From Erodium maritimum (Eukaryota; Streptophyta; Magnoliopsida; Geraniales; Geraniaceae): 64,000 bases of DNA. The position numbers and the translations under genes are program-made. Under the pieces are notes generated by a model. That model worked only from the letters and a program-made list of their open reading frames with translations, searched no databases and was not told the origin of the DNA. Numbering within the stretch: the stretch's first letter is position 1; each line of letters opens with the position of its first letter. Shown here in pieces: positions 5,846 to 61,040 of the stretch. Where the stretch lies: contig OY997596.1 in NCBI GenBank assembly GCA_963921825.1, forward strand, positions 1,865,001 to 1,929,000, given 5' to 3'.

Positions 5846-5884
5846 CTAATGTTTTATTTTGAGCAAAAGTAATCATTTATATTA

Positions 5885-6215
5885 GGGTAAACTTCAACCC
5901 ACTACCCTAAAAAAACTTGACTTTCAGCCCACTATCCTAACGAAACTTAGTTGCATCCCACTACCCTAACTTTAAATTTCGTGTCAATTTAGTACCCAAC
6001 CCCTTACGGCGTCAAATTTTAGACGGAAAAGGCACGCACGTGGCTCGCATGTGCCATTAACTGATGCGTAAAGACTGTTTTACCATCGTCTCTCTTCAGC
6101 TCTAACACCCACGACCCTCAGTCTTCACTTTCACTCTCAGACACACACGATTCTCAGACATGAAACGACGACGACGAGCAGGAGTGAGGGTTGCAGATAG
6201 AAGAAGAAGGATTGA
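5885..6215 (+). repeat. MULE-1 left terminal inverted repeat
   Basis: Matches the reverse complement of the right end with few mismatches, through blocks such as TTAGTTGCATCCCACTACCC, CCTTACGGCGTCA and AACTGATGCGTAAAGACTGT, and fades out beyond the CGACGACGACGA run near 6170-6180. The outer part contains repeated CCCACTACCCTAA-like blocks. Confidence 0.88.
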
Positions 6216-6233
6216 CTCGAAGGCTGTAGTTCG

Positions 6234-6716
6234 ATGAAACAACAATCAAAGGCGACAAGGTCGGGGTTGAAGAAAATGAAGATTGACGAGTTGTACTGCT
6301 TTTGTGGAGTTCCAGCTGCCATACGTACGTCAAGGACAAAGGATAACCCTAGAAGAAGGTTTGCTGGTTGTGGGAAGTACAGGGTAAGCTCTGCAATTGA
6401 TTACCTGTGTTGTTCAATTGCTGTGAAATTTAGGGTTTTTGTGATGTAGGGGTTTTTGTGATTTAGGGGTTTTTGTGATTATCACGTTTGCCCTGCAACT
6501 GATTTAGGGTTTAATATTTTGTGTTCATAGCAAGGGTGGAAGTGCAATTTTTTTTGTTGGATTGATGAAAAGTCATGCCATGTTGGGGAAATTCCTGTAG
6601 GTGGACAAGAGGAAATCAATATGAGGGTGAGGATGGAGGTGGATGAAAAAAGATATACCCAGAAATTTCATTCTGGTGTTGTTCATCATTGTAGGGTTGT
6701 TTCTGTATTTTGTTAG
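6234..6716 (+). CDS. GRF-type zinc finger protein carried by MULE-1
   Basis: Two exons, 6234-6383 and 6531-6716, joined at TACAGG|GTAAGC and CATAG|CAAGGG in phase 0, give 111 aa with no interruption. The N-terminal half contains CFCG, then AGCGKYR and, across the intron, GWKCNFFCWIDE. This is the C-x-C ... C ... C-x3-C layout of the GRF zinc finger, followed by a short charged tail. Short GRF finger proteins of this type occur widely in plant genomes and as extra ORFs of MULEs. A nucleic-acid binding role is inferred from the family. The neighbouring gene is the transposase on the opposite strand. Confidence 0.75.
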
Positions 6717-6739
6717 GTCATAGATTAGGTTGAATTCCT

Positions 6740-8145
6740 TGTATGGGCTGATAGGTACTGATGTAAGATCTTGTATTTTAAACAAATGGAAATGGAAATG
6801 GCCTGGTTTTGTGTTCAGTTTGTTGATGGGTACTAATCTGAAAAATTGGTTTTGAAGGTAATGGAAACTGAAATAGCATGTGAAATAAGCATATTTGTAT
6901 AAAGGAACTGATCTGAAACATGGATTTGAAGGTCATGGAAAGTGAAATAAACATGGATTTCAAGTCAAGCATATGTCAAGATGGGTACTAATTTGAAATT
7001 ATGTTTTTTAAGGTAATGGACAGTGAAATAGGTTGTGAAGTTAACATATTTGAAGATGGGTACTAACATTGGAACTTGGTTTGTATGGTAAATGGAAATT
7101 GAAGTGGAAAATGAACAAACTTGGATATGGGTACTAATCTGAAAATACAAGTAACTATAATTTTTGACATGACCCATCTGTTCATGGGTTTGAAAACCTG
7201 TATTATGGTAAATTGGAATGCATAGTTACAGTCAAATTTATATGGGAACCATTACCTAGAAAATAAATTGACAAGCATCCAATGTAACCAAAGTGATTTA
7301 CAATTCACATGTCCAACAACCAAAAGCAAAAGGCTGTAAAGCCTTGCACAAAAAAACCTTCCTTGTCCCCATCGTACATGTGCACAACCTACTTTGCATA
7401 TTAATTACATGTCCAACCACCACAAAAGTCCAAATTCACTTGTTCCCAAAAAGCCACATGTTCCTACAACCTAACCCAAAATAAACACAGCAAACCCTAA
7501 GGTTTCCAACGAGGAGGTGGTGCTGCAGAGGCTTGGCTAGATATGGATTGGTTTGGAGGTCCTCTTCCTCTTCCAATTCCTCTTCCTCTTCCTCGCACTC
7601 TCCCCCTTCCTCTGCCTCTTGTTCCACCAGTTTGGGGGATGACAAATTGAGCATCTTCTGTGATTCTTGACCCAGCTCCTTGTCCTTGGAGAAAGACAAA
7701 AGGCCTCTACACATGCTCAACCGCAACCAGTTCAAGATGTAAGAAACTACTTCAAGATTTGAGAAATATTTGAGAAAACAATTGACATATGGTAACGATT
7801 TCATACCTGATTTGTCTGTCTTTGCTTGTTGAGCTCAGATTGAGCTAACCCAATATCAGACGCTTCTTGTGTTAGGCAAAAGCGGTGTTCCGTGTTAGGC
7901 AGCCACTCCTTGAAGAGTGACACCAACCCCTGTCAAGACAGACAATAGTGGTTATAGGTACTTCTCTGAAATAACAGTCAAACACTAATATGAAAAGTCA
8001 TAATATGTAGGTACTAATGTGAAATTACACTAAACTACTAAGATGAAAACTCATAATTTGTAGGTACTAATGTGAAATAACAGTCAAACTACACATGTTG
8101 TCTAGGTACTAATCTGAAATAACAGTAAAAACTAATCTGAAAACA
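6740..8145 (+). repeat. Dispersed GGTACTAATNTGAAA motif inside MULE-1
   Basis: Variants of GGGTACTAATCTGAAA occur near 6751, 6828, 6903, 6981, 7056 and 7130 on the left side and TAGGTACTAATGTGAAAT near 7958, 8008, 8062 and 8104 on the right. All read in the same direction. They lie in the gap between genes and in the transposase intron and avoid the coding exons. Confidence 0.7.
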
Positions 8146-9469
8146 CATAAATATGCATACCTTCTGCCTATTAGTGATGAAAACCCAATGCCTTAACTGA
8201 TCCGTCCCAAAGTCTTCAAAGAATTGTTCCAAAAACCATCTCCACGAATGCTTGTTCTCCTGCTCGACAATAGCAAATGCTAGTGGAAACATCCCTCCAT
8301 CGGCATCGAATCCCACGGCCGAGAGGAGTTGCCCACCGAACCTCCCCTTCAGATGGCAACCATCCACCCCAACTATTGGCCTACAACCAGCAAGGAAGCC
8401 ATCCATCTGAGCATGATATCGGATGTACATCCTTAAAAACCGAGGTTGACTACCAGGGTCGGGTGGGTACACGTCGTGCTCAACCATCAACACCGCCTTG
8501 CTGTCTGGATTGGACCTACGAAGCACCTCACAGTATGTGTACAAGTCCTGGTGCTGTGCAGCCAAGTATTCTTTTGTCTGTAACCTTGCTCTCTTCAGTG
8601 TACGGTACAACATCGCCGGGCTGACTTTGACATTCAGCTTATCAAGTATAAGAGCTGCCAAACCCTCCTTGTCCATTGTCCGAGACTGCAAAATCTCCTT
8701 AGCAAACCTCTTCATCATCATCATCATCATCATCATCACAACCTACAAAAAAGGATATTAGTGATCAAATAACAGATTTCATATTGATCATCAAATAATT
8801 AAACACTTTCATACCCATCAAATAACTAAATGACCTCCGACCGTAATAATCTTCATCCTCATTGCCACTTGGCACCTCCTGAATAATCCTCCTTCCATCC
8901 AACATGCAGAATTTGTCTAGCTTGTGGCCACACTTTAACATTTTAATAAGACCACGCCTCGAGAAATATTCATTCTCATCTTCGTATAATTTTTGCCTCT
9001 CCCTTGGCTTCATGACTAGTAAGCCTACTGTCCCATTACTCTTTGCCTCACTACCTCCCAAAATCACCCCACTAGGAGACACCACATGTAGTGGTGGATC
9101 TCCATCTATTATGTACAACTTCCTAGCTGCCCTAGACCCTTTATACCTCTTCAACCATCTAGCTACAGACTTATCATTTTCCATAGTCCTAACTAGATTT
9201 TTTTCCTTATAATGCAGGGTACTAGTGGGCTCACGTCCTGCATCGTGCACTAAGGCAGTGAGCTTGTAGAAGCTGCATTCATCTTCACTTACAAGGAAGA
9301 CTTTCACAGATACCCCTTCGTACCTATTATCGTCTCCTACAAACTTTCCCCCATAATTGATTTCAACACAAATTGGAGCCTGAAGAAAGGGGTTTGACTT
9401 AGGACAACTCCTTGATGGTTCTTTTACACCCCCACGTTTCTGCAAACATTCGCAATAACAAGGGAACAT
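7497..9469 (-). pseudogene. MURA-type MULE transposase, internally deleted
   Basis: Frames 9469-8765, 8739-8110, about 7930-7800 and 7800-7497 form one gene. The first holds the N-terminal region before a methionine/aspartate-rich microsatellite (ATG repeats, 8712-8739). The second carries the conserved transposase block CRPIVGVDGCHLKGRFGGQL with the first catalytic Asp, then AFAIVEQENKHSWRWFL. A third piece has EWLPNTEHRFCL, the usual lead-in to the CxxH region, but the sequence then jumps to unrelated residues. The last exon is an RG-repeat tail ending APPPRWKP. The remaining DDE residues and the SWIM finger are missing. The start codon and first splice sites could not be fixed; a short leader exon near 9600 does not join in frame. 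Confidence 0.8.
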
Positions 9470-9654
9470 TCAAAGGAAACACAGAAATTAACCCCTAACT
9501 ATAAAATACGAAACCTTTACTCAAATAAGGAACCCTAGAAACTCAGAAATTAAAACCCTAACTATAAAATACGAAACCCTAGAATCGGAAACTTACTCTC
9601 CCCATCTCAACACAACCAGGTTCGTCTTCTGAAGAGAAACGCGCGCCAAGAATC

Positions 9655-9994
9655 TACAACTCTGCAACCTCCTCCTTCGTCCTCACTCATGTTCGTCGTC
9701 GTCGTGTCGTGTCTGATAATCGTGTGTGTCTGAGAGTGAGAGTGAAGACTGAGAGTCGTGACTGTTAGAGTAAAGGAAGCTGAAGAGAGACGAGAGTAAA
9801 ACAGTCTTTACGCATCAGTTAGTGGCACATGCGAGGCACGTGCGTGCCTTTTCCGTCCAAAATCTGACGCCGTAAGGGGTCGGGTACTAAATTGACACGG
9901 AATTTAAAGTTAGGGTAGTGGGATGCAACTAAGATTCGTTAGGGTAGTGAGTTGAAACTCAAGTTTTTTTAAGGTAGTGGGATGAAGTTTACCC
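9655..9994 (-). repeat. MULE-1 right terminal inverted repeat
   Basis: Inverted partner of 5885-6215. Both TIRs end in an AGACACACACGATT..CAGACA block and then a CGACGACGACGA run. Small differences between the two arms are single substitutions and short indels. Confidence 0.88.
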
Positions 9995-41205: not shown

Positions 41206-41589
41206 GGGATAATTCCATTTTAGTATCCTAAAACTTTCGGATTTCGTTTTTAGTACCCTAAATGTTTTTTGTGCCACTTCAGTACCCTAAATCTTTGTTT
41301 ATTCCAGTTTAGTACCCAATGTCTGATTTTCCATCCATTTTTGGATGGAAAAACGTCATGTGCCTTGCACATGACCCTATCTTTTATAATAATACCAAAA
41401 CTAACATTTGGTAGTTTAAACAAATTGAATTTTTGAAAAATAAAAATGATTTTTTATAAATAAAAAAATCAGACGTTGGGTACTAAACTGGAATAAGCAA
41501 AGATTTAGGGTACTGAAGTGACACAAAAAACATTTAGGGTACTAAAAACGAAATCCGAAAGTTTTAGGGTACTAAAATGGAATTATCCC
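41206..41589. mobile_element. Mutator-type MITE, 384 bp, exact 9-bp duplication
   Basis: Starts GGGATAATTCCATTTTAGTA and ends with its reverse complement; arms of about 130 bp pair closely (shared TTTCGGATTTCGTTTTTAGT, CACTTCAGTACCCTAAAT). TTAAAATTG flanks it on both sides (41197-41205 and 41590-41598). A degenerate sibling lies 39 bp to the right and a single arm at 60797. No coding capacity. Confidence 0.92.
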
Positions 41590-43119: not shown

Positions 43120-43560
43120 AGATAATTCCATCTTAGTATCCTAAATCTTTCGTATTTCATATAGAGTATCTTAAATATTTTTGTGTCACCTCAGTACCTT
43201 AAATTTTTATTAGTTCATCTAGAGTAACTTAAATTTTTTTTGTGTCACTTCAGTACCCTAAATTTTCGATAATATCATTTTAGTACTCACCGTTAACTTT
43301 ACCCTAAATTCGGTTGTTAGTGAAGAGTATTATAGTCATTTTATCTCTTTTGGATGAAAAATCAGATGGAAAGCTAACAATGGGTACTAAAATGAAATTA
43401 ATGAAAGTTTAAGGTATTGAGGTGACACACAAAAAATTTATAGTATTTTAAATGAATTAATAAAAATTTAAGATACCGAGGTGACAAAAAAAGATTTAGA
43501 ATACTCTAAGTGAAATATGAAAGATTTAAGATACTGAGATAGAATTATTCTAAAATTAAT

Positions 43561-46912: not shown

Positions 46913-46940
46913 CAATTTAACTTAATTAACATAACTAATT

Positions 46941-47768: not shown

Positions 47769-47795
47769 ATTTAACTTAATTAACATAACTAATTA

Positions 47796-47861
47796 CTGAG
47801 CTGAAATCCGCTAGAAACCGCGCTTAACGTGCGAACCGTGCGAACCGATCCGCGCCGTCCA
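47796..47861 (+). repeat. MULE-2 left terminal inverted repeat (degenerate)
   Basis: Aligns with the reverse complement of the right end over about 65 bp: shared TGAG, AAATC, TAGAAACC, GCTTAA, AACC, ATCC, GCC. Most of the differences are G/C on the left versus A/T on the right. Confidence 0.65.
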
Positions 47862-49060
47862 GCAACGATGATCAACCGCCCAGATCAACTGTCTCCCACC
47901 TTCCTAAATTTCGTGTTTCTTATACTACAAAGGGTAAGATAGTAAATTCCCTTCCTAGTTTCTTCTTCCTCTTACAGTGCGATCGCGATTGCAGACGCAC
48001 AAAACTTGAGCTGATTTCGTAGTCTTCTCTCAACAAAACACCGACAAATCAACAACTCTCCATTCCTTTGATCGATTAACGTAGAGTCAAATTCGAGCAT
48101 TACAATCTGAAGATTCAGCCGAAATTCATAAATCGTGCTCTGTTTTTGCTTCTCCTCTGCAAATCGCAAATTCAATCATTTTTTATCGCCTGATCAAGCT
48201 CAAAAACAAGTGAGAATTATCTAAATAACTTGCTTCTATCATCAGTCAATCACAGGATCGAAAAACCAGAAAATATATGTCGATTTCAAAAAATCTGAAA
48301 ACGTGCTCTGTTCTAGGGTTTATCAAGTATGTTGTTAAGATTTATCGACTATTTGATGTGAATAAACCTCGTTTCTCAACTATTCAAACGTAAACAAGTA
48401 CATTTTGAGATATACTCCAGCATTCGTTGTTTATATCTCAAATTCGATGAACAGAAATCAAATTCTGATAACTCTTGTCTTTAATCAATTGTTATCGGTT
48501 GCGTTGATAAAAGTACACTTTGTTGTTGATAAATCTAACGTAAAGCATTGATAAATTGTCTGTGACTGGACGTTCCTGAGTTAATGCTCGTTCAAGGAAC
48601 AAGTCGTGTTACTGGAATGTATTGATAAATCTTTATACTAACATTGATAAATCGTTCTAGTAGTCTTGATAAATCTTCAAACTAGTGTTGATAAATCTTC
48701 CAACTAGTGTTGATAAATATTTCTTGCAGTGTTGATAAATCTTTCTTCCAGTGTTGATAAATCTTTATGCTAGTGTTGATAAATGTATGTTTTAGAGTTG
48801 ACAAACTAATTGTCTGTGACCTTATCATTCCTGAGTAGATGATCGTTGTAGTCACACGTCGTGTAGTAGTTACCATTGATAAAATTGCATTTTATTGTTG
48901 GTAAAAGTTATGTTTAGAATTGATAAATGACTCTGACCAGGTCCCTTCCTCAGTTGATAAGTCCAACAATTGTGTTGATAAAACTGGCTTACAGTGTTGA
49001 TAAATCTTTCATGTTATATTGATAAATCTCTCTGACCAGGTCCCTTCCTGAGTTGGTACC

Positions 49061-51748
49061 ATGGATCTTGACGATGCTTGCTTTGGATTCGAGTATGAAG
49101 ATGTGGATCCTGTTCCACAACCTGTGGTCACAAAAAAGGTGTGGATTCCTGAATGTAGTGTTGATTTAAAGCCTCAAAAGGATATGAAGTTTGGTTCCTT
49201 GGAGGAAGGTATAATTTTCTACCAAACTTATGCATTAAATAGTGGGTTTGGGACACGTCGAGGGCCAGAGAAGAAGAAACCAAGGAGTAACACAATCAAT
49301 TTTAAATACATGTATTGTGCAAGAGAAAGAGAAGCATTTGTCGATGATACCGAAGGAGAGACCAACGACAAGTTAAGAAAAAGATATAGAATGTCTACAC
49401 GGACAGGCTGTATGGCGAGGATTTCTTTGAAACACACTGAAGATGGTTATACGGTGTATGAGTTTAGAGAAGACCACAATCACCCACTGCAATGTAAGCG
49501 TGATTTGCATTATCTGAGATCAAATAGGGATTTAACACCAAGGCATAAGCAATTTATCATAGATTGCTCAAAGGTTAATTTGGGAGCTACAAAAGCATTT
49601 AACCTTTACAGCCAAATAGTTGGAGGTCCTACCAACGTAGGAACGTGTCCAACTGATTTCAGAAACTTGCAGCGGGATCTGAAAGTTTACATTGGAGAGA
49701 GTGACGCTCAAATTACCATTGACCAATTCCACACTAAAGAAGACTATTGTAGTGACTTCTTCTTTGAGTACAAAGTTGATGCTGGTGATCGGCTAAGCCA
49801 CCTTTTCTGGGCTGATTCGATGTCGAGGAAGAATTATGAGCTATTTGGTGATACGGTGTCGTTCGATTCAACCTATAGATCAAACAGGTAAAGCATGTTG
49901 TATAACTTGACAATCTGCATCAGTTTGATTGATAAACCCTGCATGTAAGGTTGATAAATTGTATAATCACTGTTGATAATTTATTTATCCTTGCTGCTTA
50001 TGTTTTTGTTTGTTTAGGTACATGGTGGTCTTTGCACCATTCACTGGAGTAGACAACCACAACAAGTCGATCATCTTTGGTGCTGCTTTGTTAGCCAAAG
50101 AGGATGCCGAATCTTTTGTTTGGTTATTCCAAACATTCCTCAAAGCTATGAAGATGAAAGAGCCAAACTGTTTCATAACAGATCAAGACCCAGCGATGAG
50201 AAAGGCTTTTGAGGAAGTGTTCACACAAAGTAGGCATCGACTATGTATGTGGCACATAATGCAGAAGCTTCCTTCTAAGGTAAGTCCTGTTTTGAATTTA
50301 TGCATTTGTTAGTGATTTATGGTTGATAAAAGTTAACATTAGGAGATAAATAATTTGTTCGGTTGATTGTGAGACAAATTTATACATTATTACTGCAGGT
50401 TCCTCACAATTTATACCATGAGACAAATTTCAAGAAGAAATTTAAAGCATTGGTGTGGAGTAACTACACCGAAATAGAGGAGTTTGAGCTGACTTGGAAG
50501 GCTTTGATGGATGAATTCCAACTACACGATCACACTTGGTTGTCTTCTATGTTTGATATACGGGATAGATGGATCCCTGCATATTTTAGGGGGCTAAAAA
50601 TGGGACTATTCCTTAGAACAACATCAAGATCAGAGAGTGAGAACAGTGCATTTGGTCAATTCACTAACAGGTACCTTTATTTTTTGATTGATAAATGTTT
50701 CAATGAGGACTGATAAATTCTACACTCTTGACTGATAAAAATATGTGTGGAGACAGTAGTGTTTTCTGATGATATAATTTATTCTGTTATGATAAATGTT
50801 TCAAGAAGAACTGATAAATTTTGAAGTCTTGACTGATAAAAAATGTTGTTGTTCAGGTGCCTTACCTTGGTTGAATTCATGTGGCGCTTCGATACAGTCG
50901 TTGAAGGTCAGAGACAGAAACAATTACAGTTGGACTTCCAATCAAGCACCTTAGCTCCCAATTTCATGGTATTATCTGAAATTGAAAAGGACGCTTGGAG
51001 GATTTACAGCCGCTCAATCTTTGACATCATAAAGAAAAGTGTTGTGGGAACAACCTTCATGTGTGGGATCATAACCTGTGTTGGAAAGGATGGAAACAAG
51101 ATATATAACATCGCAAACAAACATGGGGACAAGACATTTGTTGTTGTGCAAAGCTTACCTGGGAACCATTGCACATGCACTTGCATGAGATTTGAAGGAT
51201 TTTGCATCCCTTGTATGCATATTTTCTTGGCTTTGCAAGCATCTATGGTTGATCAAATACCGGAGAGCTTGATCACGCAAAGATGGACAAAGGATGTACG
51301 CAAGAATGCTGAAAACTCTGCAGATTCTGAAGAATTACAACCATCTGCCTACGGTGAGTGTAAGAAGATTATTGCAGATATATGCTCGATGCTTCAATCT
51401 TGTGCCCTCCATCCAGCAGTGAATGCTGCAAAGTTGAAGGAATTTGCAGAACAAGTAAAGGACTTCAGGAACAAGTTGAATGATGACGAAGCTGATGATT
51501 TTGCATCAACCACAACACAAGAACTTCAGACTTTGACAGGTCTTTCTAAACCTTCACAGGTTATTGTCAAGCTACCCCATATATCAAGGACAAAAGGTTG
51601 TGGAAAGAGAATTCAATCAGGGATGGAAATGTCTATTGAAGAAGCTAAGAAAAGGAAGAGGACTTGCAAAGGATGTGGTCAACCAGGTCATGACATCAGA
51701 AACTGCTCCCAAAGAAAAGATGGCTGCAGTGATAAAACATTGAACTAG
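49061..51748 (+). CDS. FAR1/Jittery-type MULE transposase, apparently intact
   Basis: Four exons, 49061-49887, 50018-50279, 50399-50670 and 50857-51748, all GT-AG with matching phases, give 750 aa with no stop. Residues about 45-145 are a FAR1-type (WRKY-GCM1) DNA-binding domain (FYQTYALNSGFGTRRG, TGCMARI, EDHNHPL). The MULE transposase core has Asp269 (VSFDSTYRSNRY), Asp331 (FITDQDPAMRKAF) and Glu442 (TTSRSESENSAF) as the likely DDE triad. A SWIM zinc finger is at 559-575 (CTCTCMRFEGFCIPCMH), and a CCHC knuckle near the C-terminus (CKGCGQPGHDIRNC). Host FAR1-RELATED SEQUENCE genes have the same domains, but TIRs and element-wide repeats show this one belongs to a transposon. It would bind the element ends and catalyse excision and insertion. 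Confidence 0.9.
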
Positions 51749-52296
51749 TGTTGATAAATGTAGCACTTAACGTTGATAAATACTTTCCACCTATTACTGA
51801 CTCTATGAATTACAAGGTCATTCAGTACTGATAAAACATTGAATTAGGCTTGATAAAGTCTTCAAGTAAAGTTGATAAATCTGTTTTTTAATATTCCTAA
51901 CTCTGATTTACAAGGTCCTTCAACATTGAATATGTACACAAATTTAAGGGTGATAAAAGTTGTAACAAATGTTGATAAAAGCTTAGTAGATCACTGATAA
52001 AATACCTTCGAAAGTACTTACCTATTGCTATTCAAAATAGCCATCCACAACAGTGATAAACCATGAGCACAGAATTGATAAAACTCTTCTATATATGTGA
52101 TAAACCTGGTACATAAAACAGATTGATAAACCCTGTCATTTCACACGCTCAAAAACATCTACGCACATTTAGTATCATCTGTTTACCAAAAAATGCTAGA
52201 GTCATAAGAAGTTTGCAACTGATTACATCCTTTTTACCAAAAAAAGTAACTGCACAGAAGACTTAATGTTTTATACAAGTGCCTTGTCCAACAGTC

Positions 52297-55200
52297 CTAT
52301 ATAGTTCTTTCTGAAGAAGCAGGAGATAGCTCATCCCCTCCACTTGATTGATTCCTCTGACAGTAGCTCCTCAGCTTTACCTCGTTCATGATCTTTGCGG
52401 TGTTGCTTGGATACGTGCACAATTGCATGGCATATCGATGCCTCAGCTTCAATAATTGATCAGCCTATATACACAACAAAAAAACCACCTCAGTTAGTTA
52501 AACTACACACATAAAAACACATGACTTAAAAAGAACTGCACAAGATAAAAATGTTAGCTTACATTGTTCTTTGACATAGGGAAACCCCAAGTACTTCCAG
52601 ATTCACCCATGTACCTCTCCATGTGAAGCATGCAGTAGATGCCACAGTCAACCACATTATCACTGCTGCTCCAATCTAGCTTCAAACCCTTTCCACGTCC
52701 ATTTCTGATTCTCACAGAGAGAGTAGCATCAAGCCTTTCAAGGAACATCGAAAACCTATTCCTCTGTCAATGATTAACAGAAAATACATACATTAGAAAC
52801 ACAAAAATGTACGTAAAATTAATAACTAAAATCGCAAATAAAAACTTACCAAATTGGTGATTCTGTTCCCGTATTTGCCTCTAAAGTTAGTCCCCTGCAA
52901 GTTGTCGAGGACAGCCACTGTGTGTTTCTTCATGTCGAAACATACCAAGTAATAGTGAGACTTTGCATGAACTGGGAAAAACACCTGCCATAGAAGAACA
53001 AAGAAGACAAACATGGTTACACAAAACACAAACCTAATACTATAAAAATGATACATAAGCCTGAAAATGTGTGGGAGATCCTTACCAAATCCACAGTAGT
53101 GAGATTGACATCCGTGTACAACTCCAACTCGGTTTCAAGATCATCACACCAGTTTTCTTTCTTCAGATCAATCAAGGATGACTAATGATAAAAAAACATG
53201 TAAAATGATAAACACATTCCCACCTTAGTATTATTAAAAAAAGACAAAATTCACATGAATAAAAAACACTCACGCTTGCAACTGTTGTGAAGAAAAACCT
53301 TGAAGGTTCATCTGGTGTTCTCTTCTCCTCCATCAAATTCATGTAAGCTACCCATGCATTAATAACACCCACCATTACTTCTGTCCCAACTTTCATCGAC
53401 TGTAAATCATTTTTCATCAACTTATACTGCCATCCATGATTTCAAAAACCATTTCCCTTCAAAAAAACACAACACATCAGTGGTGATAAAACTATATCAC
53501 ATTGTTGATAAAACTAGCAGATAGAGTTGATAAAAATGAAACACATGGTTAACAGATAAAAACCAATGGTATACGCATCAGTGGTGATAACCCTATATAA
53601 CATTGTTGATAAACCTGGCAGATAGAGTTGATAAAAATGTAAAACATGGTCAACAGATGCAAAACAATGTTTGTTAATGCTATATACATCAGTGGTGATA
53701 AACCTATATAGGATTGTTGATAAACCTAGCAGATAGAGTTGATAAAAATGTAAAGACAGGGTTAGGACAATACCACTGGTCTTCTCTATCGTCGTTCAGC
53801 AGTCATTCCATCCATAGTTGCTCCTCTTTTGTCAATGGAGCATTCAAATCTATTTTCCTAGTTGATGGCCCTGCCTTTATAATTTTCTTCGTGGTTGGCT
53901 TTTTACTACTGCTTCTCGATTTCTTCTTTTCTTCTTTCCCTTTGCCCTTCTCTGTCCTCACAACATCTTCACATGCTTCCCTCCCTACATCAACATCTCC
54001 ACATGCTTGCCTCCCTATGTCAGCAACATCTTCAATACCGAGACAGAATGTAGGCATCCCGCGACCTTGTGGCTCGCCTACATTGGTCTCCTCGGCATCC
54101 GCCACAGACGTGATATTATCATCACCTTTTCCTTGTTCGACAACATTGTTGCCTTCAGCTTCTTCAACAGCATTATCACCTTTCCCTTGATCGCCAGCAT
54201 CATCGCCTTTCCCTCCCACAACACCTTCTACCTCAACGTCACAATCTCTTCCTAACTCCACTACCGGTTCAACCCCATCCTCGTGCTCCTCAGCAACAAT
54301 ATTATCCCTTCCAAGCCTAACAGAACCAACTTCTGCCTTCTCTCTCTCTGCTACACAATCTTGGCCATCGTTCTCCTTACCGCTACCCTGACTATTCACT
54401 TTAGTTGCAGCATTAAATGCTGCATCAATAGCCTTTATCACATCAGGATGCCTCCACCAACGATCTTGTGATGACTCTTCGATGTTGTGCTCTGATGGGG
54501 CCCCCACCATCTCATTCACAGCATCGTGAAGCCTCCTGACGGTGATATTGTCAGAAAACTTTGAAATGGCTGTTCTGATGCTGTCCTTAAAAAGGACATA
54601 GCTATCAGCGAGATGCACTGCTTGTTCTGCCAGCTTTACGATGAATTCCTACACATTACAAAAATACAAAAAATGTTACAGAAAAACACAAAAACTTATG
54701 ACTTTAACACAAAAAAACTTTGAATATACCTCTTGTCCCAAATCATCAATGACATCTTCAACTTCCTCAGGTACGTATGGGTCTTCGTCTATGTAACCTT
54801 CCCCGAATGACCCGTATTGCTTTTCAAGATACTCCCGATCTTTCAAGTCATCAGATGTCCACCCAATGAGAGAAGGCTGGGCCCTCTCCACAACTCTCTT
54901 CTCGAGCACAACCCGATCAACATAGTATAATTGCATAACACCAAACAAAACAATTTAGAAACTGCTGACAGTGATAATAAATTTGTTTATCAACACTACA
55001 AGCATAAATTATCAACCTTATTCAATACTTTTATCAATGCAACAAGGATGATAAAAAATTAAACTAACCATGAAAAATGTCAAAGGCCCAGCATAGAACT
55101 TCTCTCCCGTGGCTGACTTATCCCATTTTTTTTTGCTTTCAATCAGACCATCAATGAAAAAGCCACACCAGTCATATTCTGGGATGGCATTTACTTTGTC

Positions 55201-56223
55201 CATTGCGTACAACACAGAATTATTGACATAGCTCCCACTCGTCCATTCAACCATCACAGTTGAGAATAACACCGCAAAATTCCACTTGAACATTTCTTCA
55301 TCTCCTCTTTGTTTCTTCATCACTTCAATCAGAGAAGAGATGCTCACTCCAAAAACTGATTGAACATTAAACTGCCGAAGCCAACGTGCAACAAGTCAAC
55401 AAAAATCAGACCTCTCTGGGATGATCGCTCGTCCGCCACAAGGGATCCCTAATGTTTCCTTCACATTTTCGCTGCTGATGTGTAAAGGTCGGTCTTGTGA
55501 TAGCTTTATGCAAAGACTCCCGGTATGGATATTACTCACAAGCCAAAACCCAAGGGCTTGTGGTAAGTCCTTCACCTCCAGCAGCAAGATACTCCCAAAC
55601 CCCATGTCCTGTACTGCCTTCTTCTGCAAATCACTCATTCCCTCCATGAAATTGACCAAGGACTTAGGTGATGTCCTGACCTTCAACCTCTGAAGACCAT
55701 CACCTCTTACACGAACCTGATCCTTCTTGGTCCTCTTTGTAATTGGGTTTGCAAGAGCATTGGCCTCCGGCTATGGTCTCTTCTTCACAGGACCTACGAA
55801 TGCTTCCATAGATGAGCTTTGTCCTGCATCCTTTGTCGGATTAGGAGCAGGAGCAGCAGTTGCAGATGAGCTATTTTCTGCTACATCATTTGCTGGGTTC
55901 GGAGGAGGAGCTATGACTGATCCCTCTGCTGGATTACGAGGAGCGGGCATCAACAACTTTTGTCCTGCATCCTTTGTTGGATTAGGAGCAGCAGTCGCGG
56001 ATGAGCTCTCTCCTCCTACAACATTGGCGGGATTCGGAGGGACTTTGATCTTGATAACAGGACGTTTCTTCGCTTTGACTGCACAACACATTCAAAAACA
56101 CAAAAGATCACCAATCATACTAAAAGCATATAATAAAAACAAAGTTTAAATTATTCTAAACCTTTTACCTGGGATCAAGTCCTTCAGGAGAAGTGAATCC
56201 TCATTCGATCTAGTCTTCACCAT
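52297..56223 (-). pseudogene. Ulp1-protease-like gene of MULE-2, with in-frame stops
   Basis: Nine exons can be traced on the minus strand: 56223-56169, 56078-55069, about 54948-54730, 54648-53774, 53426-53274, 53181-53086, 52984-52850, 52763-52563 and 52464-52297. The N-terminal part has two copies of a Pro/Asn/Ala repeat (NPTKDAGQ). MSDLQKKAVQDMGFGSILLL and LPQALGFWLVS match the domain before Ulp1 in plant transposon-borne C48 proteases. An acidic linker follows. The catalytic part has VFFPVHAKSHYYLVCFD (His), VLDNLQG (Asp) and VVDCGIYCMLHMERYMG (Cys). Stops interrupt the frame at 55771-55773, 55396-55398 and 53803-53805 while the surrounding frame continues, and the acceptor of exon 3 is unclear. 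Related Ulp1 genes occur in 'kaonashi' MULEs; SUMO removal is the family activity. Confidence 0.8.
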
Positions 56224-57455
56224 TTCTCTGAAACACAGACACTTATACATAAGAGTGTGAGCAAATCAAAGCTGAGTGTGTTTGATAAACCTGAATCACA
56301 GTGTTGATAAAAGCACAGGACAGTTGTGATAAACACACATAATAAGACTGATAAACACAGATCACAGTGTTGATAAAAGTACAATACAGTTGTGATAAAC
56401 ACAGATACTAAGACTGATAAACATACATTATAGAGCTGATAAAAAAACAATGCAATGTTGATAAAAATGAATACAAATGTTGATAACTCACAGAGTTGAT
56501 ACTTATTCAATACTAAAAAATATAAGTGATAAATCTATCTCACAGAGTTGATAAATGTGAATGTCAATGTTGATAAAACACAGATACACCACCTCTCGCA
56601 TATTCAACCCTCCCCAATTCAAACTTCAAAATGCATACCAAGCTTCACTTCAGTCATGAAAACATTCTTTTACTCAACCAGAAAACACATTGTCATGCTT
56701 ACCAATCGTATACAACCACAAAACACATTATCTGAGATCAAACTTCGAAATCAGTACATGCTCACAGACATATCATCAAAAAATCAAAATCAACACGCAT
56801 GCAAATGAAAATGAGACGATCAAACGCAGAATACAAGAGATTTACAAGTTTTAGACAACACAAAATGCACAATCAAACACAAAACCAAGATCAAACATCA
56901 ACGCACATGCAGTTAAGTTGAAAAATAACTAAAAACAGAGCACAAAGCTTTCCAAACCCTGAATATATGTTCCTCCCTCCGGAAATCGCATACAAAAACG
57001 CTTTGAAGTAACAAAATCAACTATCGAACTCAAAAACTAGGTCAAAATCGACTGGATTTCAAAAATAAATCCCTAAATCAGTGAAGCTTATCACAACAGA
57101 AAATGATCAACACAACGAGAATCGGAGACCAAACCTCAATATGATGCGTAGAACTCAACCGGAACTTTGGATTTTGCTTGAGATTGACGAAAAACACGAA
57201 GAAAACCGCACAAAAATGACGACCGAGCGAGAAGAAGAAGCTGAGAGCGAGAGCGAGTGCGTGCGTGCGTGAGAGTTGTGTCTGATAGATAGGAACAGTC
57301 GCGTAGTGGAGAAGAACAAAATGAAATTACGATTTAATCCTCACAAAACTAAGAAATATTACAAAAATGCCACCGAATTGTGCTGTTTTTTTTCTTCTAA
57401 CAGAAGTCAACAAGTCAACATCCTACTAATAATCTCAGCCATCCATTTGTGAAAT

Positions 57456-57521
57456 GAATGGCTTGGATTGGTTTACACAGTTTTTAGATTAAGCTATGGT
57501 TTCTATTTGATTTTTTCTCAC
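57456..57521 (-). repeat. MULE-2 right terminal inverted repeat (degenerate)
   Basis: Inverted partner of 47796-47861. The inner side continues into a small palindrome, CCATCCATTTGTGAAATGAATGG, at about 57438-57462, absent as such on the left. Confidence 0.6.
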
Positions 57522-57534
57522 TACTTACTAATTA

Positions 57535-60796: not shown

Positions 60797-61040
60797 GGTA
60801 ATTCCATTACAGTACCCTAAATCTTTCATATTTCATTTGGAGTACCCTAAATCCTTTTTATGTCACCTTAGTACCCTAAACTTTCATTAATTCATTTGGA
60901 ATACCCTAAATCTTTTTTGTGTCACATCAGTACCTTAAACTTTCATTAATTCCATTTTAGTATCCACTGTTAACTTTTCAACTAATTTTCCATCCAAAAC
61001 AGAAAAAAATGACCATAATCCTTTTTACTGACAACCAAAT
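60797..61040. mobile_element. Single arm of the 41206-type MITE family
   Basis: GAGGTAATTCCATTACAGTA, then repeated AGTACCCTAAATC and GTGTCAC blocks, match one arm of the MITEs at 41206 and 41629, up to the central TTTTCCATCCAAAA region. The other arm is missing; a LINE insertion begins at 61089. Confidence 0.65.

What the first reader, a model, noticed from the sequence alone, without database searches (positions are those of the whole stretch)
48480..56580. A one-orientation TTGATAAA motif fills all non-coding parts of MULE-2
Dozens of TTGATAAA-type units at roughly 20-35 bp spacing occupy the 5' region, transposase introns, convergent gap, an intron of the Ulp1-like gene and its upstream side. 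They keep the same strand across genes of both directions and stop at exon borders. That is not a simple satellite (spacers vary) nor a promoter feature. Possible meanings: arrayed binding sites for the FAR1 domain or another element protein, a replication-strand signature, or an unusual amplification process that exons purge.
Basis: seen in the sequence. Interest (0 to 1): 0.82.

Follow-up and report, generated by a model that had tools for sequence, protein, structure and literature searches.

The report
Transposon with triplet DNA address tags
A plant jumping gene carries the same short DNA word in groups of three, 22 letters apart, in most of its larger non-coding stretches, probably as docking sites for a protein that keeps the element from being silenced, as known for another element group in thale cress.

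Summary
TTGATAAA occurs 39 times on + in the element's non-coding DNA (3,137 bp by my exon model), 0 times in exons (5,204 bp), and 3 times reversed; shuffles give 0.4. Spacing is not 20-35 bp: 42 of 67 neighbouring TGATAA pairs are exactly 22 bp apart, mostly as triplets (13 of 21 automatically called runs have length three). Taking every TGATAAA, the site 22 bp on is intact or nearly so in 44 of 61 cases and unlike it in 17, with nothing between, while spacers between compartments are near chance (31% against 28%). That indicates selected sites, not a decaying satellite. One intron carries the triplet reversed. The element is a Jittery-like FAR1 MULE with an Ulp1-like antisense gene that is broken in this copy.

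The closest known system is the VANC-target arrays of Arabidopsis VANDAL elements, read by an element-encoded anti-silencing protein. No VANC-type domain (DUF1985) was detected, so this works like that system but is not shown to be a member. A second MULE in the window has its own one-orientation word. Binder and methylation effect are inferred; no other copy could be examined.

The parts
47796..57526 (+). Probable extent of the MULE: degenerate inverted repeats (aligned 47790-47861 with 57455-57527) and candidate 8-bp target-site duplication ACTAATTA at 47788-47795 and 57527-57534
   Evidence: two scorings: 120 against a maximum of 93, and 115 against 99, in 200 dinucleotide shuffles each; scorings chosen after seeing the match; with other scorings did not beat shuffles; chance of a shared 8-mer in the chosen flanks about 2%
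49061..51748 (+). Transposase gene, 4 exons by my splice choices (49061-49887, 50018-50279, 50399-50670, 50857-51748), 750 residues without internal stop: FAR1 and MULE domains; SWIM and CCHC matches below cut-off
52298..56223 (-). Ulp1-like gene, about 9 exons by my splice choices, Peptidase_C48 near the C-terminal end; broken by several in-frame stops and a frame break
48504..48555 (+). Triplet, 5' region
48622..48805 (+). Run of 9 units at 22 bp (last one with one mismatch), 5' region
48876..48927 (+). Triplet, middle unit with one mismatch
48975..49026 (+). Triplet just upstream of the transposase ATG
49929..49980 (+). Triplet in transposase intron 1 (third unit with one mismatch; the run caller adds a weak fourth site at 49907)
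50323..50374 (+). One intact unit with two possible decayed partners, transposase intron 2; called as a single site by the run caller and left out
50688..50840 (+). Two triplets (50688-50739, 50789-50840), transposase intron 3
51729..52104 (+). Four triplets (51729, 51828, 51950, 52053) at the convergent gap; the first begins inside the last transposase exon
53483..53746 (+). Three triplets (53483, 53584, 53695) in an intron of the Ulp1-like gene, on a tandem repeat of about 101 bp
54986..55037 (-). Reversed triplet in another intron of the Ulp1-like gene (middle unit imperfect)
56282..56487 (+). Run of 10 units at 22 bp upstream of the Ulp1-like gene
56526..56577 (+). Triplet upstream of the Ulp1-like gene
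48319..48348 (-). Reversed pair of motif-like sites 22 bp apart, left side (the second imperfect)

Best explanation
The triplets are cis-acting address modules: three copies of TGATAAA, each 22 bp (about two turns of DNA) after the last and so on nearly the same face of the helix, bound cooperatively by a sequence-specific protein. By analogy with VANC of VANDAL elements, that protein is most likely encoded by this MULE family and counteracts host silencing over the whole element. Spreading modules through introns, the convergent gap and both upstream regions gives many landing sites without touching protein sequence; local duplication of whole triplets keeps their number high. Shown: word, spacing, excess of triplets, recurring core against random spacers, absence from exons (one unit excepted), local duplication. 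Inferred: protein binding, identity of the binder (Ulp1-like protein or transposase of an intact copy), anti-silencing effect.
For: Taking all 61 TGATAAA on + and asking nothing else, the 7 bases 22 bp further on are identical in 39, one mismatch in 5, two in 0, three or more in 17; at offsets 21, 23 and 24 none of the 61 has fewer than 3 mismatches. Between compartments spacer columns are 31% identical against 28% expected, core columns 98% (the core figure is partly by construction, since triplets were picked by their cores). Runs of exactly three: 13 of 21, p about 1e-6 under a geometric null; 9 of 17 after collapsing local duplicates, p about 3e-4. An A four bases before the core is shared in 92% (unit 2) and 73% (unit 3) of comparisons but 44% (unit 1). 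Triplets share spacers more within a compartment (52%) than between (37%), so triplets duplicate locally. [quoted passage not shown] A second MULE in the window has its own word: 9 sites on +, 0 on - at one mismatch or less.
Against: No DUF1985 match in the read-through Ulp1-like protein (Pfam, E up to 1). The Ulp1-like gene is broken in this copy. No binding, expression or methylation data. No other copy could be examined. Strand agreement by compartment is only 7 of 8 or 7 of 9. Unlike VANC21 targets, the outermost element ends carry no triplets.
Confidence: 0.55

Rival explanations
1. The triplets are binding sites of the FAR1-domain transposase itself, serving transposition or autoregulation rather than anti-silencing.
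For: The transposase carries an N-terminal FAR1 DNA-binding domain. TnpA of Spm and MURA of MuDR are cited as element proteins linked to loss of methylation (PMC10398659 passage), so a transposase could also be the anti-silencing factor.
Against: Triplets are internal (introns, convergent gap, upstream regions); the probable terminal repeats have none. The FAR1 site named in PMC8599713 is CACGCGC.
Confidence: 0.2
2. The sites recruit a host transcription factor of the GATA type, raising expression of the element's genes.
For: TGATAA fits the GATA consensus WGATAR (abstract seen in a listing, PMC5693882).
Against: Sites also lie in the 3'-3' convergent gap; the 22-bp triplet, the last A of TGATAAA and the A at -4 go beyond WGATAR; a second MULE in the same window uses another word.
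Confidence: 0.13
3. Neutral tandem duplication: a 22-bp minisatellite spread through non-coding DNA and is merely not tolerated in exons.
For: Tandem and higher-order repeats are present (22-, 66- and 101-bp periods); spacers are more alike within a compartment.
Against: A neutral repeat would lose core and spacer alike; here the site 22 bp on is either intact (0-1 mismatch, 44 of 61) or unlike the core (3 or more, 17 of 61), none with two, and spacers are near chance between compartments. Runs of exactly three are in excess.
Confidence: 0.07
4. An RNA-level or replication-strand signal.
For: Strong raw strand bias (39 to 3).
Against: Introns of the two convergent genes (for example 50671-50856 and 53461-53772) carry the word on the same DNA strand and so opposite words in RNA; one triplet is reversed; the word is concentrated in one element.
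Confidence: 0.03

Closest known systems
VANC target arrays of Arabidopsis VANDAL21 (YAGTATTAY) and VANDAL6/8 (AGTTGTCC, AGTTGTAC) (Hosaka et al. 2017, PMC5735166)
   Same: Short word, high density, mostly one orientation, in introns and intergenic or upstream non-coding DNA of a MULE, (nearly) absent from exons, within local tandem repeats, rare elsewhere
   Different: Different word; 22-bp triplet grammar (spacing of VANC words not given in the parts I read); no triplets in the outermost ends; FAR1 transposase and a C48 gene with no detected DUF1985; binding and hypomethylation not shown here
Jittery-like MULEs with ULP1-like sequence (grapevine and melon, PMC2528002 passages; Jittery group 36 of PMC6446971 Table 1)
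   Same: FAR1 at the N-terminus of the transposase and an ULP1-like gene downstream of it; 8-bp TSD listed for the plant Jittery group
   Different: Table 1 lists one ORF for that group; 'tandem' and 'subterminal' do not occur in the grapevine paper's main text, so no such array is described there under those words
Spm TnpA and MuDR MURA systems
   Same: Element protein linked to loss of methylation at its own DNA (PMC10398659 passage)
   Different: MURA acts on the terminal inverted repeats (same passage); TnpA sites are subterminal (recalled, from no call); here the sites run through introns and the gap between genes

Membership tests
VANDAL/VANC anti-silencing system | Short word at high density and mostly same orientation in the element's non-coding DNA | tested here: met
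   (39 + / 3 - non-coding, 0 exon); by compartment 7 of 8 or 7 of 9 agree
VANDAL/VANC anti-silencing system | Words lie in locally amplified tandem repeats | tested here: met
VANDAL/VANC anti-silencing system | Word array includes terminal non-coding regions | tested here: not met
   no TGATAA on + in 47796-48299 or 56641-57526, with element ends only probable; VANC21 signal includes terminal regions
VANDAL/VANC anti-silencing system | Word rare outside the element family | tested here: inconclusive
   61 in the element against 6 (+) and 7 (-) in the rest of this window; genome not held
VANDAL/VANC anti-silencing system | Element encodes a VANC protein (DUF1985) | tested here: not met
   Pfam up to E = 1, on two degenerate read-through pieces; only Peptidase_C48 found. 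That the library holds DUF1985 was assumed, not checked
VANDAL/VANC anti-silencing system | Transposase belongs to the VANDAL clade | not tested
   no tree built; N-terminal FAR1 fits the Jittery group 36 of PMC6446971 Table 1 rather than group 45
VANDAL/VANC anti-silencing system | Element protein binds the word and removes DNA methylation | not testable with these tools
   needs gel shift, ChIP-seq or DAP-seq, bisulfite sequencing
Jittery-like MULE with ULP1-like gene | FAR1 N-terminal domain and MULE domain | tested here: met
   FAR1 E 7.7e-14, MULE E 8.7e-29
Jittery-like MULE with ULP1-like gene | SWIM or CCHC zinc finger near the C-terminus | tested here: inconclusive
   SWIM E 0.064 and zf-CCHC_2 E 0.29, both below cut-off
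Jittery-like MULE with ULP1-like gene | Ulp1/C48 gene downstream of the transposase | tested here: met
   Peptidase_C48 E 1.1e-4, 22.6 bits, cut-off 20.7, on a read-through piece
Jittery-like MULE with ULP1-like gene | Terminal repeats and 8-bp TSD | tested here: inconclusive
   candidates found; negative under other scorings
Host GATA factor site | Matches WGATAR | tested here: met
   TGATAA fits the consensus (listing); binding not testable here

The most novel reading that the evidence does not exclude
Anti-silencing address arrays are not a VANDAL peculiarity but a recurrent design of plant MULEs: each family carries its own word in its own grammar, here a rigid 22-bp triplet read by a trivalent or trimeric protein, with the Ulp1-type peptidase as the effector that strips SUMO from silencing factors at the bound element.
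Probability: 0.25. Interest if true: 0.82.

Novelty: new variant of a known kind. Interest (0 to 1): 0.62.

Why it matters
The sequence-specific anti-silencing system that I found in print (VANC) was described in Arabidopsis VANDAL elements. A Jittery-like, FAR1-type MULE with a similar non-coding layout but another word and a 22-bp triplet grammar, and a second MULE in the same window with yet another word, suggest that such address arrays may be widespread and can be found from sequence alone. The triplet also predicts the geometry of the unknown binder (three contacts, nearly one helix face), which a gel shift can test directly.

Tried and rejected
Whole-genome search of the host: no genome is held. 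Relatives in public collections: transposase exon 4 in viral contigs (3 pattern matches, none confirmed) and exon 2 in genome contigs (44 pattern matches, none confirmed). So conservation in other copies could not be tested. The exact triplet TGATAAA-N15-TGATAAA-N15-TGATAAA gave 8 stretches with one match each in viral contigs; they were not examined. The same strict pattern has 24 overlapping starts on + and none on - in the window.

Terminal inverted repeats: the repeat finder (25 of 56 pairs shown) and the alignment scorings gave nothing above shuffles; only two stricter scorings chosen afterwards did. Treat the element ends as probable.

Fold of the unknown N-terminal part of the Ulp1-like protein: mean pLDDT 38, useless; no fold search was run.

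Run-length test: I used a hand-edited run list (15 of 21 of length three: a 4-run with a weak end counted as 3, and a 2-run replaced by the reversed triplet). The figures in this report are the automated list (13 of 21) and its collapsed form (9 of 17). The geometric null is a simple model and runs may not be independent. For the column analysis the runs of 9 and 10 were cut into threes (the tenth unit dropped); the decayed candidate 50323 was in the table but left out; the single sites 52123, 53185, 53205 and the pair at 55048 were left out of all three.

Literature: 9 searches, capped listings. Among the papers listed, those describing such arrays are on VANDAL (with 20 of 989 listed, 15 with 20 of 26, 35 with 12 of 14, 36 with 25 of 513). 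'TTGATAAA' with 'transposon' gave two papers, a bacterial and a primate one. Jittery with ULP1 and motif terms: no title or abstract among the 10 of 339 listed reports such arrays. A further VANC paper (PMC9016345) is not held; subscription papers are mostly missing.
Full report
What is there. In 48300-56640 the word TTGATAAA occurs 39 times on the + strand of non-coding DNA (3,137 bp), never in exons (5,204 bp), and 3 times reversed; 300 dinucleotide shuffles of the non-coding pieces give a mean of 0.4 and a maximum of 3. The division into exons is my own model, without RNA evidence. The core TGATAAA is 61 times on + in the element against 6 (+) and 7 (-) in the rest of the window.

Of 67 neighbouring TGATAA pairs on the + strand, 42 are exactly 22 bp apart. 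The motifs mostly form triplets at 22-bp steps: an automated run caller gives 21 runs, 13 of length three, one of four (with a weak end), one of nine, one of ten, one of two and four single sites. Under a geometric run-length model with the same mean, 13 or more threes in 21 has probability about 1e-6; after collapsing three sets of local duplicates, 9 of 17, about 3e-4. Gaps between triplets vary, which is what looked like variable spacing. 22 bp is 2.1 turns at 10.5 bp per turn, so successive sites face nearly the same side.

Selection, not mere amplification. The test that does not depend on picking triplets takes all 61 TGATAAA on + and looks 22 bp further on: 39 are identical, 5 have one mismatch, none has two, 17 have three or more; at 21, 23 or 24 bp none has fewer than three. 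So sites are intact or absent, with little in between. I then aligned 21 triplets (20 + strand, 1 reversed; long runs cut in threes; the decayed candidate, single sites and one pair left out). Between compartments (5' region, introns, convergent gap, upstream region) the core columns are 98% identical, partly by construction; the spacer columns used are 31% identical against 28% expected from their composition. Over the whole 14-base spacer the figures are 52% within and 37% between compartments, and three triplets in one intron are 82-89% alike in their spacers: triplets have been duplicated locally. One spacer base stands out: an A four bases before the core, shared in 92% (unit 2) and 73% (unit 3) of comparisons but 44% before unit 1, which points to a grammar of the triplet as one site. 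The triplet modules hold 6 CG (both strands counted) in 1,092 bp against 40 in 1,516 bp of other non-coding DNA; this may be cause or effect of the word and I do not lean on it.

Orientation and borders. One triplet, in intron 54955-55068, is reversed (middle unit imperfect), and 48319/48341 is a reversed pair. By compartment 7 of 8 agree in orientation (p = 0.07), or 7 of 9 with the reversed pair (p = 0.18). Five introns of 81-101 bp have no TGATAA and one of 93 bp has two sites 20 bp apart. The first unit of triplet 51729 lies within the last transposase exon.

The element. The + gene is a four-exon transposase (750 residues, no internal stop) with FAR1 (E 7.7e-14) and MULE (E 8.7e-29) domains and sub-threshold SWIM and CCHC matches; the minus gene has a Peptidase_C48 match (E 1.1e-4) and is broken by several in-frame stops and a frame break. 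N-terminal FAR1 with SWIM or CCHC at the C-terminus is what PMC6446971 Table 1 lists for the plant Jittery group, with one ORF (passage); [quoted passage not shown] A degenerate inverted repeat (47790-47861 with 57455-57527) beats 200 shuffles under two scorings chosen after seeing the match, not under earlier ones; an 8-bp candidate duplication ACTAATTA flanks it. The triplets are thus internal: 47796-48299 and 56641-57526 have no TGATAA on + and one on -.

A second case in the window. Another MULE at about 5885-9994 (9-bp duplication TTTATATTA at 5876 and 9995; MULE domain E 3.6e-11) has its own word, TACTAATNTGAAA: 9 sites with at most one mismatch on +, 0 on -, against 1 and 2 in the rest of the window. 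With a looser 14-base form and up to three mismatches the counts are 12 (+) and 3 (-) inside and 31 and 33 outside, so only the close matches stand out. I made no gene model for it: the sites lie outside the MULE-domain match, but two of the nine (8107, 8130) fall inside the tail of the mechanical ORF 8089-8739, perhaps an intron. It was found by reading the sequence after the first case, not by an unbiased survey, and the two transposases were not compared by a tree.

What it works like. Hosaka et al. 2017 (PMC5735166; I read parts 1-3 of 6: abstract, introduction, results, discussion, start of methods) show that VANC21, encoded by VANDAL21, binds YAGTATTAY; [quoted passage not shown] and that targets of VANC6 have other words. 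Sasaki et al. 2023 (PMC10398659, passages) report that RNA-directed methylation hits the same non-coding regions. The layout here matches in word length, density, orientation, position in introns and between genes, and tandem growth; it differs in lacking triplets at the outermost ends and in that no DUF1985 protein was detected. I therefore say it works like VANC targets (0.55) and do not file it as a VANDAL element.

Limits. One copy only, an unnamed host, no binding or methylation data, and the candidate partner gene broken in this copy. That the Ulp1-like protein is reader or effector is inference; the transposase's FAR1 domain and a host GATA factor (consensus WGATAR, listing) remain rivals.

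Noticed in passing
5885-9994: Second MULE with terminal inverted repeats that contain 30-bp tandem units (read by eye; 5893-5969 and 9909-9986) and a 9-bp duplication TTTATATTA; it carries a different one-orientation word array TACTAATNTGAAA, 9 sites on + and 0 on - at one mismatch or less.
   Followed up: partly
6276-6720: Short + strand reading frames in that MULE with a cysteine pattern that looks like a GRF-type zinc finger protein split by an intron (translation; name recalled, no family search).
   Followed up: no
46916-46940 and 47770-47794: A 25-bp perfect direct repeat TTTAACTTAATTAACATAACTAATT flanks a segment of about 830 bp; its right copy overlaps the candidate left target-site duplication of the MULE.
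   Followed up: no
41212-41583, 43135-43538, 60810-60957: Tandem repeats of about 30 bp with AGTACCCTAAAT-like units, two of them in inverted pairs, possibly ends of small DNA transposons.
   Followed up: no
54986-55037: The only reversed triplet; it sits in an intron of the minus-strand gene, so it is in that gene's sense direction, whereas the three triplets in another intron of the same gene (53483-53746) are antisense to it.
   Followed up: partly
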